A stretch of DNA of 64,000 nucleotides, from NCBI RefSeq assembly GCF_900112525.1, contig NZ_FOMD01000004.1, positions 124,001 to 188,000 on the forward strand. The letters are read 5' to 3'. The stretch is from Klenkia taihuensis. GTDB taxonomy: Bacteria; Actinomycetota; Actinomycetes; Mycobacteriales; Geodermatophilaceae. This document shows, one piece after another, positions 31,522 through 34,003 of this stretch. The first letter of the stretch is position 1; the number at the start of each line of letters is the position of its first letter. The notes beneath the pieces were generated by a model that was not told where the DNA came from, did not search any database, and saw nothing but the letters and a program-made list of their open reading frames with translations. Both the position numbers and the translations under genes were made by a program.

Positions 31522-32583
31522 ATGCGCGTGACCACCACCGAGCAGCCACCCGTCACCGACCGCCGCCGGCTGCTGGTCCTCGGCGGGGTCGCGGTCGCGC
31601 TGCTGGTCGGCGGCCTGTGGTGGGCCAAGTACGGGCCCTACGCCGGGAAGGTGCCGGCCGTGCTGGGCAGCCACGACCTCGGCGCCTCGATCGTCACCGG
31701 GGACGGCGACACGGCCCCGCCGGTGTCGCTCGCCGCCGGCTGGGACTTCACCGTCGCCTACACCGCGGCCATCTGGAAGGCCCTCGTCGTCGGGCTGGTG
31801 CTGGCCGCGGCCGTACAGGTGCTGCTGCCGGTCAACTGGCTGCGGCGGGTGCTGGGCCGCCCCGACGCCGGCGCCGCCCGCGGCGGGCTCCGCGGTGGTC
31901 TGGCGTCGGTCCCGACGCTGATGTGCTCCTGCTGCGCTGCCCCGCTGGCCGTCGGTCTGCGGCGGGCGCGGGCCGGAACCGGCGCGGTGCTCGCCTTCTG
32001 GCTGGGCAACCCCGCGCTCAACCCGGTGGTGCTGGTCTTCTGCCTGGCCGTGCTGCCCTGGCCGTGGGCGGTGCTGCGGTTCGGGGCCGGCCTGGCCGTC
32101 GTGGTCGGGGCCGTGGTGCTGGCCGGGCGCCGGGGGACGGCGCCGGTCGAGGTGCCCGAGGTGCCCGTGGACACCCGGCCGTCGCCGGTGCGGTTCGTCG
32201 CGGTGCTGGCCGGGCTGTCCGTGCGGCTGCTGCCGGAGTACCTCGCCGTCGTCTTCGTGCTGGGGGCGTTCCGCGGCGTGCTGTTCCCCGCCGAGGCGGG
32301 GTCCGGTGCCGCCGCGGTCGCCGTCCTCCTGCTCCTCCTGGTCGCCGGCATCGCGCTGCCGGTGCCCACCGGCGGGGAGGTCGCCGTCGTGGCCGCCGCA
32401 CTGGCCGCGGGCCTGGCCGCACCCGCGGCAGCCGTCCTGCTGGTCACCCTGCCGCTGCTGAGCCTGCCCTCGCTGCTGATGGTCCGGCACGCCTTCCCCC
32501 GGCGGCTGCTCGCCGGCACGACGGGGCTGGTGGCCGCGGTCGCGCTGGCCGGCGCCGGGGTGACGGCCGCGCTGACCGGGTGA
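31522..32583 (+). CDS. Permease of the YraQ/DUF318 type inside the sel cluster
   Basis: 353 aa from ATG 31522; GTG at 31528, 6 nt after GAGGGG, is an alternative. About eight transmembrane segments. The signature LMCSCCAAPLAVGLRRA (about residue 133) with FWLGNPALNPVVL is characteristic of YraQ-type permeases, some of which export arsenicals. The position between selD and selC suggests selenium-compound transport, which is inference; the CxCC cysteines could bind a thiol-reactive oxyanion or metal. Confidence 0.8.
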   Translation: MRVTTTEQPPVTDRRRLLVLGGVAVALLVGGLWWAKYGPYAGKVPAVLGSHDLGASIVTGDGDTAPPVSLAAGWDFTVAYTAAIWKALVVGLVLAAAVQVLLPVNWLRRVLGRPDAGAARGGLRGGLASVPTLMCSCCAAPLAVGLRRARAGTGAVLAFWLGNPALNPVVLVFCLAVLPWPWAVLRFGAGLAVVVGAVVLAGRRGTAPVEVPEVPVDTRPSPVRFVAVLAGLSVRLLPEYLAVVFVLGAFRGVLFPAEAGSGAAAVAVLLLLLVAGIALPVPTGGEVAVVAAALAAGLAAPAAAVLLVTLPLLSLPSLLMVRHAFPRRLLAGTTGLVAAVALAGAGVTAALTG

Positions 32584-32604: not shown

Positions 32605-32700
32605 GGAGGCGTCAGGGTGTCTGGTGGCCCCCGCGGCCTCTAAAGCCGACGTGGCCCGGTAGCCGGGTCAGGCGGGTTCGATTCCCGTCCGCCTCCGCCA
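32605..32700 (+). tRNA. selC: tRNA-Sec with CUA anticodon (reads UAG)
   Basis: Acceptor stem 32605-32611/32690-32696 (7 bp), discriminator G and encoded CCA. D stem 32615-32621/32626-32632 has six pairs, one T-C mismatch and a 4-nt loop, the long D stem expected of tRNASec. The anticodon stem is 32634-32637/32645-32648, and the loop is CTCTAAA (32638-32644), with U33 at 32639 and anticodon CTA at 32640-32642. The variable arm is an 8-bp stem 32652-32659/32663-32670. The T arm is 32671-32676/32684-32689 with loop TTCGATT. Acceptor plus T stem total 13 bp (7+6), matching the tRNASec rule. It lies directly upstream of selA. The anticodon is CUA rather than the usual UCA. Confidence 0.93.
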
Positions 32701-32728: not shown

Positions 32729-34003
32729 ACGACCGACCCCCGCCGGCAGGTGCCCCGCACCGACGCCCTGCTCGCCGACCCCCGGGTCGCCGCAGCCGCC
32801 GACCGGCTCGGCCGCGAGCTGGCGAAGTCGGTCGTCGCCGCCGTGCAGCAGCGCGTGCGGGACGGCGAGGTCCCCCCGGCGGACGCCGCCGACGCGGTGG
32901 TCGCCGCGCTGCCCGCCTCGGCGGCGAGCCTGCACCGGGTGCTCAACGCCACCGGCGTGCTCGTGCACACCAACCTGGGCCGGGCGCCCTGGTCGACGGC
33001 CGCGGTCGAGGCGGTCGTGGCGGCCAGCGGCACCACCGACGTCGAGCTCGACCTGACCACCGGCCGGCGCGGACCCCGCGGCGAGGGCGCGATCCAGGCC
33101 CTGCTGTCCGCCGTCCCCGCCGCCGGGGCCGCGATCGTGGTGAACAACTGCGCCGCCGCGCTCGCCCTGGTCGCCACCTGCCTCGGCGGCGAGCTGGTGG
33201 TCGCCCGCGGGGAGCTGGTCGAGATCGGCGACGGGTTCCGCATCCCCGACCTGCTGGAGTCGACCGGCGCCCGGCTGCGCGAGGTCGGGACGACGAACCG
33301 GGTCGCCCTCGCCGACTACACCGCCGCCGTCGGGCCCGGCACCGGCGCGGTGCTGAAGATCCACCCGTCGAACTTCGTGGTCCGCGGGTTCACCCGCTCC
33401 GTCGAGGTGGCCGAGCTGGCCGGGATCGGGGTCCCCGTGGTCGCCGACGTCGGGTCGGGGCTGCTCCGCCCGCACCCGGCGCTGCCCGACGAGCCGGACC
33501 TGCAGACCACGCTGGCCGCCGGCGCGGACCTGGTGCTGTGCAGCGGCGACAAGCTGCTCGGCGGGCCGCAGGCCGGGCTGGTGCTGGGCCGCGCCGACCT
33601 GGTGCAGCGGCTGCGCCGGCACCCCCTCTACCGCGCGCTGCGGGTGGACAAGACCACCCTCGCCGCGCTGGAGGCCACGCTGCGCGGCCCGGTGCCGCCG
33701 GTGCGCCGGATGCTGGAGACGACCGTCGAGGAGCTGCGCACCCGGGCCGAGGCCGTGGTCACCGCGCTGGGCGGCGACGCGCACGTGGTCGAGGCGGGCG
33801 CCCGGGTCGGCGGCGGGGGAGCACCGGAGTTCGAGCTGCCCTCCGTCGCGGTGTCGGTCCCGGCCGCCCTCGCCGAGCCGCTCCGGCGCGGCACCCCGCC
33901 GGTGGTCGGCTACCTGGCCGAGGGCCGCACGCTGCTGGACCTGCGCAGCCTCGACCCGGCCGACGACCAGGCCCTCGTGGGAGCCGTGCGCGCGTGCAGG
34001 TGA
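32729..34003 (+). CDS. selA: L-seryl-tRNA(Sec) selenium transferase; start codon uncertain
   Basis: Converts seryl-tRNASec to selenocysteinyl-tRNASec with selenophosphate and PLP. The PLP lysine is in SGDKLLGGPQAG; the tRNA-binding N-domain and LNATGVLVHTNLGRAPWS are clear. The first ATG/GTG in frame is GTG at 32750 (417 aa), but it has no Shine-Dalgarno. Seven codons upstream an ACG at 32729 follows AGGGAG (32719-32724) by 4 nt and would restore the family-typical start MTDPRRQVPRTDALL (424 aa). I give the ACG start with doubt. The 3' end overlaps selB by 10 nt. Confidence 0.93.
   Translation, partial: TTDPRRQVPRTDALLADPRVAAAADRLGRELAKSVVAAVQQRVRDGEVPPADAADAVVAALPASAASLHRVLNATGVLVHTNLGRAPWSTAAVEAVVAASGTTDVELDLTTGRRGPRGEGAIQALLSAVPAAGAAIVVNNCAAALALVATCLGGELVVARGELVEIGDGFRIPDLLESTGARLREVGTTNRVALADYTAAVGPGTGAVLKIHPSNFVVRGFTRSVEVAELAGIGVPVVADVGSGLLRPHPALPDEPDLQTTLAAGADLVLCSGDKLLGGPQAGLVLGRADLVQRLRRHPLYRALRVDKTTLAALEATLRGPVPPVRRMLETTVEELRTRAEAVVTALGGDAHVVEAGARVGGGGAPEFELPSVAVSVPAALAEPLRRGTPPVVGYLAEGRTLLDLRSLDPADDQALVGAVRACR

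What the first reader, a model, noticed from the sequence alone, without database searches (positions are those of the whole stretch)
32638..32644. tRNA-Sec carries a CUA anticodon: selenocysteine probably encoded by UAG
Seen: the 7-nt anticodon loop of the selC gene is CTCTAAA, so with U33 in place the anticodon is CTA, pairing with UAG rather than the canonical UCA for UGA. All tRNASec-specific features are otherwise present (long D stem with 4-nt loop, 8-bp variable arm, 13-bp acceptor/T stack), and selA and selB follow directly. Established: UAG-directed Sec was reported for Geodermatophilus and Blastococcus. Inference: every selenoprotein gene of this genome would contain an in-frame TAG and be truncated by normal gene callers.
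Basis: partly seen in the sequence, partly recalled or inferred. Interest (0 to 1): 0.95.

Follow-up and report, generated by a model that had tools for sequence, protein, structure and literature searches.

The report
Selenocysteine encoded by UAG in Klenkia
A bacterium of the genus Klenkia carries a selenocysteine tRNA that reads UAG instead of the usual UGA, and its formate dehydrogenase gene has a matching UAG at the selenocysteine site; this codon swap was already reported for other members of its family.

Summary
Observation confirmed. The gene at 32605-32696 is a tRNA-Sec by Rfam (65.7 bits, cut-off 47) with anticodon CUA. No second tRNA-Sec passes the cut-off in the 4.32 Mb genome.

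Interpretation supported. The genome's formate dehydrogenase alpha gene has one internal stop, a TAG at the known Sec position, with a GGUCU-loop hairpin at the spacing of E. coli fdhF.

In the family the two traits go together. Of 111 selC loci read, 102 are CUA and 8 UCA. Three of the seven UCA-only genomes were read to have FDH with TGA at that site. On a SelA tree the labelled rows need one change.

The kind is known: UAG-Sec in Geodermatophilaceae is described in PMC5330540, citing Mukai et al. 2016. Added here: Klenkia, UCA relatives within the same family, and a closing pair of the anticodon loop that differs with the anticodon. As a side result, Geodermatophilus sp. LHW52908 has a second, UCA tRNA-Sec beside an AhpD-like gene with an in-frame TGA. 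In the window's genome only one selenoprotein gene was found.

The parts
32605..32696 (+). selC, tRNA-Sec with CUA anticodon (anticodon 32640-32642, loop 32638-32644); followed by GCCA to 32700
   Evidence: RF01852 65.7 bits; ARAGORN anticodon cta; covarying cloverleaf
32750..34003 (+). selA, L-seryl-tRNA(Sec) selenium transferase, 417 aa
   Evidence: TIGR00474 405 bits, cut-off 268; PF03841
34000..35724 (+). selB, Sec-specific elongation factor, 574 aa, with C-terminal SelB winged helix
   Evidence: TIGR00475 271 bits, cut-off 242; PF09107
30441..31436 (-). selD, selenide water dikinase, with Cys in HGGGCACK, so not itself a selenoprotein
   Evidence: TIGR00476 384 bits, cut-off 125; start and sequence

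Best explanation
The window holds the Sec system of a Klenkia species whose Sec codon is UAG instead of UGA. SerRS and SelA make Sec-tRNA-Sec (CUA). SelB brings it to a UAG that is followed, 18 nt on, by a GGUCU-loop hairpin. There it competes with release factor 1, and formate dehydrogenase is made full length. UAG elsewhere stays a stop. Shown by sequence: the tRNA, its anticodon, selA/selB/selD, the in-frame TAG at the FDH Sec site, the hairpin, and the joint difference of anticodon and codon among relatives. Inferred: charging with Sec, SelB delivery, competition with RF1, and the reason for the swap. UGA ends 37 of 40 picked frames in the window, so using a rare stop for Sec may lower conflict; this reason is a guess.
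For: tRNA-Sec with CUA, sole copy over the cut-off. FDH alpha frame of 1106 codons with one internal stop, TAG at codon 200; NCBIfam NF041513, 1918 bits. Of 51 FDH sites read in genera whose tRNA-Sec is CUA, 49 have TAG at this codon; the other 2, both in G080, have lost the region. One search lists an FDH match in 100 of 112 family genomes; the rest were not read. Hairpin: GGTCT at positions 22-26 from the Sec codon, as in E. coli fdhF; on the 25 distinct sequences 98.9% of cells pair, 3 of 7 pairs change on both sides, slid controls 31-57% paired. Of 111 selC loci read, 102 CTA, 8 TCA, 1 not a tRNA-Sec. In genus g8, which has TCA, FDH relatives have TGA at the aligned site with GGTCT at the same distance, 4 of 4 loci read (L319-L322); one of the four genomes, G072, gave no readable selC. 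SelA tree: 39 CTA rows form one side of one branch, support 100. RF1 present.
Against: No protein or selenium data. Single-sequence folding of the FDH hairpin region is no better than shuffles (z -1.05, 0.32, -0.06); only the 19-nt core is (z -2.46). In one search, 20 of 500 shuffles reach the number of pairs with double changes and 18 of 500 the number of pair types. The stretch is also coding, so amino-acid constraint adds to its conservation. A SECIS-shaped TAG pattern occurs twice in the genome and three times in the reversed control, so the pattern alone proves nothing. Only one TAG selenoprotein gene was found: no UGSC in any of the 9 genomes of the genus, no stop in 5 AhpC-type genes. 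One genus-mate, G080, lacks the Sec codon and hairpin in both FDH copies yet keeps a CTA selC.
Confidence: 0.95

Rival explanations
1. The gene is a tRNA-Pyl, as ARAGORN labels it, and UAG codes pyrrolysine.
For: ARAGORN's label; presumably set by the CTA anticodon.
Against: tRNA-Pyl (M. barkeri) has a variable arm of only three nucleotides (PMC7609411, passage); here it is an 8-bp stem. Rfam calls tRNA-Sec. It sits with selA, selB, selD. The TAG is at a Sec site of FDH. pylS was not searched genome-wide.
Confidence: 0.01
2. The selC is a decayed or suppressor-type copy and FDH is a pseudogene with a chance nonsense mutation.
For: Only one candidate selenoprotein found in the genome; both FDH copies of genus-mate G080 are broken.
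Against: TAG at the same codon in 49 of 51 sites read; compensatory changes in both tRNA and hairpin; codon and anticodon differ together among relatives.
Confidence: 0.02
3. UAG is reassigned to Sec throughout the genome rather than only before a SECIS.
For: TAG is a rare stop: 3 of 40 picked frames.
Against: RF1 is present, SelB keeps its winged-helix domain, and the hairpin is conserved, all fitting context-bound recoding.
Confidence: 0.02

Closest known systems
UAG-decoding tRNA-Sec (CUA) of Geodermatophilaceae, Mukai et al. 2016 (not held), as described in PMC5330540 section 17 (passage read)
   Same: Same family, same anticodon, TAG at the Sec site of FDH
   Different: Klenkia is not among the organisms named in the passage; the UGSC-motif protein is absent from all 9 genomes of the genus searched; no TAG AhpC like that of Blastococcus saxobsidens was found in this genome
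Canonical bacterial UGA-Sec system, E. coli selABCD and fdhF
   Same: SelA, SelB, SelD, tRNA-Sec fold, GGUCU hairpin loop at the same distance from the Sec codon
   Different: Codon UAG for UGA, anticodon CUA for UCA, release factor 1 rather than 2 as the competitor (inferred)
TCA-type tRNA-Sec of genera g6-g8 and TGA-type FDH of g8, same family
   Same: Same Sec position and hairpin spacing in FDH; closely similar tRNA
   Different: Keep UGA; closing pair of the anticodon loop is U-A, not C-G

Membership tests
UAG-decoding Sec system of Geodermatophilaceae | tRNA-Sec fold (13-bp acceptor/T stack, long D stem, long variable arm) | tested here: met
UAG-decoding Sec system of Geodermatophilaceae | CUA anticodon and no UCA tRNA-Sec over the Rfam cut-off in the genome | tested here: met
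   genome 99.98% complete
UAG-decoding Sec system of Geodermatophilaceae | Selenoprotein gene with in-frame TAG at the Sec site | tested here: met
   FDH
UAG-decoding Sec system of Geodermatophilaceae | bSECIS hairpin just after the TAG | tested here: met
   the folds on longer stretches are not significant
UAG-decoding Sec system of Geodermatophilaceae | Family membership of the organism | tested here: met
   SelA 95% to Klenkia brasiliensis, grouped with it at support 100; G076, same genus, has that species' contig length; Klenkia is Geodermatophilaceae
UAG-decoding Sec system of Geodermatophilaceae | Sec shown in protein at UAG | not testable with these tools
   needs 75Se or mass spectrometry
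tRNA-Pyl | Variable arm of about three nucleotides | tested here: not met
   8-bp variable stem; feature from PMC7609411 (passage)
tRNA-Pyl | pylS and pylBCD in the genome | not tested
   only the fold and neighbourhood were examined

The most novel reading that the evidence does not exclude
Its native CUA tRNA-Sec serves TAG genes (UGSC read; FDH listed with one TAG). A second, UCA tRNA-Sec, 65% identical to the native one, lies on a lower-GC stretch beside a transposase-like frame and next to an AhpD-like gene with TGA at its CxxU site. A mobile pair of tRNA and selenoprotein would have brought UGA-Sec back into a UAG-Sec lineage while using the host's SelA and SelB.
Probability: 0.5. Interest if true: 0.7.

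Novelty: new member of a known kind. Interest (0 to 1): 0.42.

Why it matters
It supports in a further genus that the Sec codon can move between stop codons by an anticodon change, and shows one bacterial family in which both states survive. That gives a natural before-and-after pair for studying how SelB, the SECIS and the two release factors interact. In practice, FDH genes with this TAG would be cut by gene callers that know only UGA-Sec (inferred; no annotation was checked), and ARAGORN labelled tRNA-Pyl the two CUA selC genes whose labels I looked at.

Tried and rejected
Single-sequence folding of the selC gene gave a non-cloverleaf minimum (z -2.70); the family alignment gave the cloverleaf. 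Folding 36-50 nt after the FDH TAG gave no signal over shuffles. A genome-wide pattern for TAG + 18 nt + hairpin found FDH and one other place (L317), whose frame is open for only 24 codons before the TAG; rejected as a gene. That pattern tests one spacing and one loop type, so other TAG selenoproteins are not excluded. My first two selC census scripts failed through a wrong expression (the second half, on named loci, worked); one search replaced them and read 102 of 111 loci, another the next 8; the last, L291 (G072), is not a tRNA-Sec by its letters. Of 80 named SelA loci, 12 gave no selC to ARAGORN and are left without a label on the tree. A pairwise alignment of the Klenkia and E. coli hairpins misplaced the stop codons and was not used. 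A scan of the upstream permease was in a wrong frame and was redone. An AhpD-like search of 396 phylum genomes at E 1e-30 found one relative with a TGA, L295 (37% identity), with no tRNA in the 3.5 kb fetched. Plasmid search for that gene: 327 records, all under 60% identity.

Full report
WHAT IS THERE. The window lies in a 4.32 Mb genome, 99.98% complete. Its SelA is 95% identical to that of Klenkia brasiliensis DSM 44526 and groups with it at support 100; Klenkia belongs to Geodermatophilaceae. The gene at 32605-32696 is tRNA-Sec by Rfam, 65.7 bits against a cut-off of 47. The loop 32638-32644 reads CTCTAAA, so the anticodon is CUA. selA and selB follow in the same direction and selD lies upstream on the other strand, each over its NCBIfam cut-off. 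SelD has Cys at the site that can be Sec in other SelD proteins (sequence; the site is recalled). A search of the whole genome lists six matches to the tRNA-Sec family; only this one passes the cut-off.

IS THE STRUCTURE REAL. On 30 sequences from the family, chosen from those fetched, the consensus fold is the tRNA-Sec cloverleaf with 13 acceptor plus T-arm pairs, a 6-bp D stem with a 4-nt loop and an 8-bp variable arm. Of 28 distinct rows, 99.7% of cells pair, 12 of 33 pairs have changes on both sides, and no shuffle of 500 reaches the covariation score; slid versions pair 39-54%; 41 of 500 shuffles reach the number of pair types.

THE MATCHING CODON. The genome has four PF00384 matches in three frames; one frame, at C7:641681-644998, contains one internal TAG and no other internal stop. 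The TAG is codon 200 of 1106 from the start taken here, in ENQARI*HSATVPGLG. E. coli fdhF has TGA at the corresponding place (ARV*HGPSV). Read through, the protein matches NCBIfam NF041513 formate dehydrogenase at 1918 bits. From the first base of the TAG, GGTCT stands at positions 22-26, exactly as in fdhF, closed by a 7-bp stem in the 19-nt core (z -2.46). I read this site in 51 FDH places of genera whose tRNA-Sec is CUA: 49 have TAG with the hairpin; two, both of G080, have lost the region. On the 25 distinct sequences 98.9% of stem cells pair and 3 of 7 pairs change on both sides; slid controls pair 31-57%; 20 of 500 shuffles reach the count of doubly changed pairs. The stretch is also coding, so part of the conservation is amino-acid constraint; and folding of longer single stretches is not better than shuffles.

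OTHER SELENOPROTEINS HERE. The UGSC family (PF24696) is absent from all nine genomes of the genus, though found in 54 of 112 genomes of the family; of 30 fetched UGSC loci, 18 have TAG at the U of UGSC and none TGA by my motif scan. Five AhpC-type genes in this genome have no internal stop, nor has its one AhpD-like match. A SECIS-shaped TAG pattern finds FDH and one place that is not gene-like, with three matches in the reversed control. So FDH is the one selenoprotein found here; the search was not exhaustive.

UAG STILL ENDS GENES. Of 40 gene-like frames picked in the window by codon-position GC, 37 end in TGA and 3 in TAG; one of the three lies over frames on the other strand and is doubtful. 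Release factor 1 is present. I infer that UAG is recoded only before the hairpin. That Sec sits on UAG because UGA is nearly the only stop used is a guess.

WHERE THE SWITCH LIES. In 112 genomes of the family, 110 have an RF01852 match over the cut-off (its list of matches is cut short, and matches near 50 bits were mostly not read). I read 111 loci: 102 CTA, 8 TCA, one (G072) not a tRNA-Sec. That is CTA in 101 genomes including all nine of the genus, TCA only in 7 (G067, G069, G070, G071, G073, G074, G075; genera g6-g8), and both in G059. Of the remaining four, G072 has a further match near 50 bits and G097 one at 48.2 bits, neither read; G068 and G098 had no match. The g6-g8 assemblies are fragmented and may be metagenome bins (inferred). 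FDH relatives in g8 genomes G072-G075 have TGA at the aligned site, with GGTCT at the same distance (4 of 4 loci read, L319-L322). For the other four TCA genomes no FDH Sec site was read; G071 has a further listed piece with a TGA that was not fetched, and fragments 44-68% identical to the query without the Sec site. No FDH at E 1e-100 was found in G067-G075. So where both were read, codon and anticodon differ together. The pair that closes the anticodon loop differs too: C-G in all 102 CTA and U-A in all 8 TCA genes read (pair counts). On a quick SelA tree of 84 rows, 39 CTA and 33 TCA rows need one change, support 100; 12 rows carry no label. The deeper forks are weak: the three TCA rows of the family are not joined to the CTA rows with support. 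That the switch lies within the family therefore rests on the family assignment of the held genomes and the likeness of the tRNAs, not on this tree. All 38 CTA loci among 80 named ones are Geodermatophilaceae by record or by place in the tree; one is titled Bacillus sp. AZ43 and sits among Blastococcus.

COMPARISON WITH WHAT IS KNOWN. PMC5330540 (passages read) states that three Geodermatophilaceae genomes have tRNA-Sec with CUA, citing Mukai et al. 2016, with Sec-UAG in FDH and UGSC proteins and, in Blastococcus saxobsidens, AhpC. PMC10778597 and PMC8124441 (passages) also say that some bacteria use UAG for Sec. The 2016 paper itself was not held. A search for Klenkia with selenocysteine found no paper in the held library. 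The window is therefore a further member of a published kind.

SIDE RESULT. G059 has, besides its CTA selC (C11:15836-15927), a TCA selC at C17:1173-1263, 81.8 bits. Contig C11 has the length and selC place of NZ_QVQH01000019.1, Geodermatophilus sp. LHW52908. Near the second selC is a transposase-like frame (named by eye) and, on the other strand, a 192-residue AhpD-like frame with TGA in LNRCFY*MESHAEF (TIGR01926 112.6 bits, cut-off 81.8). A 7-bp hairpin follows the TGA but is no better than shuffles (z -0.74). GC is 62-66% in the first 6 kb and 70-79% over nearly all the rest. The same contig carries the genome's only match to a DXS-like protein (named by eye), 87% identical to that of another genome of its genus, which supports that the contig is the host's. 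The two tRNAs are 65% identical. In the same genome the UGSC gene has TAG (L170) and FDH is listed with one TAG (not read). No other of the 112 genomes has a TGA in an AhpD-like match of similar strength; a 20-bit hit in G075 has two. The searches listed no paper that I recognised as describing such a pair; apart from the passages cited, only listings were seen. Against it: the stretch is at a contig end, and no expression data exist.

VERDICT. Observation confirmed, interpretation supported at 0.95, kind already published; interest 0.42.

Noticed in passing
L184 1169-1263 (-) and 1579-2157 (+) (G059:C17): Second tRNA-Sec, UCA, next to an AhpD-like gene with in-frame TGA and a transposase-like frame, in a genome whose native tRNA-Sec is CUA: possible dual Sec codon use.
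   Followed up: partly
L182, L183 (G080, same genus): Both FDH copies lack the stretch with the Sec codon and hairpin, with different left ends and the same right end, and the frame is broken; the CTA selC is kept. Real decay or assembly fault.
   Followed up: partly
window 32637 and 32645: The base pair closing the anticodon loop is C-G in all 102 CUA and U-A in all 8 UCA tRNA-Sec genes read.
   Followed up: yes
window 31522-32583 (+): Predicted permease (PF03773) between selD and selC; of 80 named selA loci only K. brasiliensis (L042) and one Blastococcus MAG (L067) gave a match.
   Followed up: partly
L059 (SPQJ01000003.1): Record titled Bacillus sp. AZ43 carries a CUA selC and a SelA that sits among Blastococcus: probably mislabelled.
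   Followed up: no
window 32605-32700: ARAGORN calls this and the K. brasiliensis selC tRNA-Pyl, an annotation trap.
   Followed up: partly
L217 (G037:C25): G037 has two CTA tRNA-Sec genes; the second, on a short contig, is identical to those of G079 and G082, genus-mates of the window's genome, which suggests contamination of that assembly.
   Followed up: no
G009:C1:1292973-1293368, G005:C40:185981-186331, G085:C79:69418-69546: Three weak AhpD-like matches (20-27 bits) contain one in-frame TAG each; possible further TAG selenoproteins or chance.
   Followed up: no
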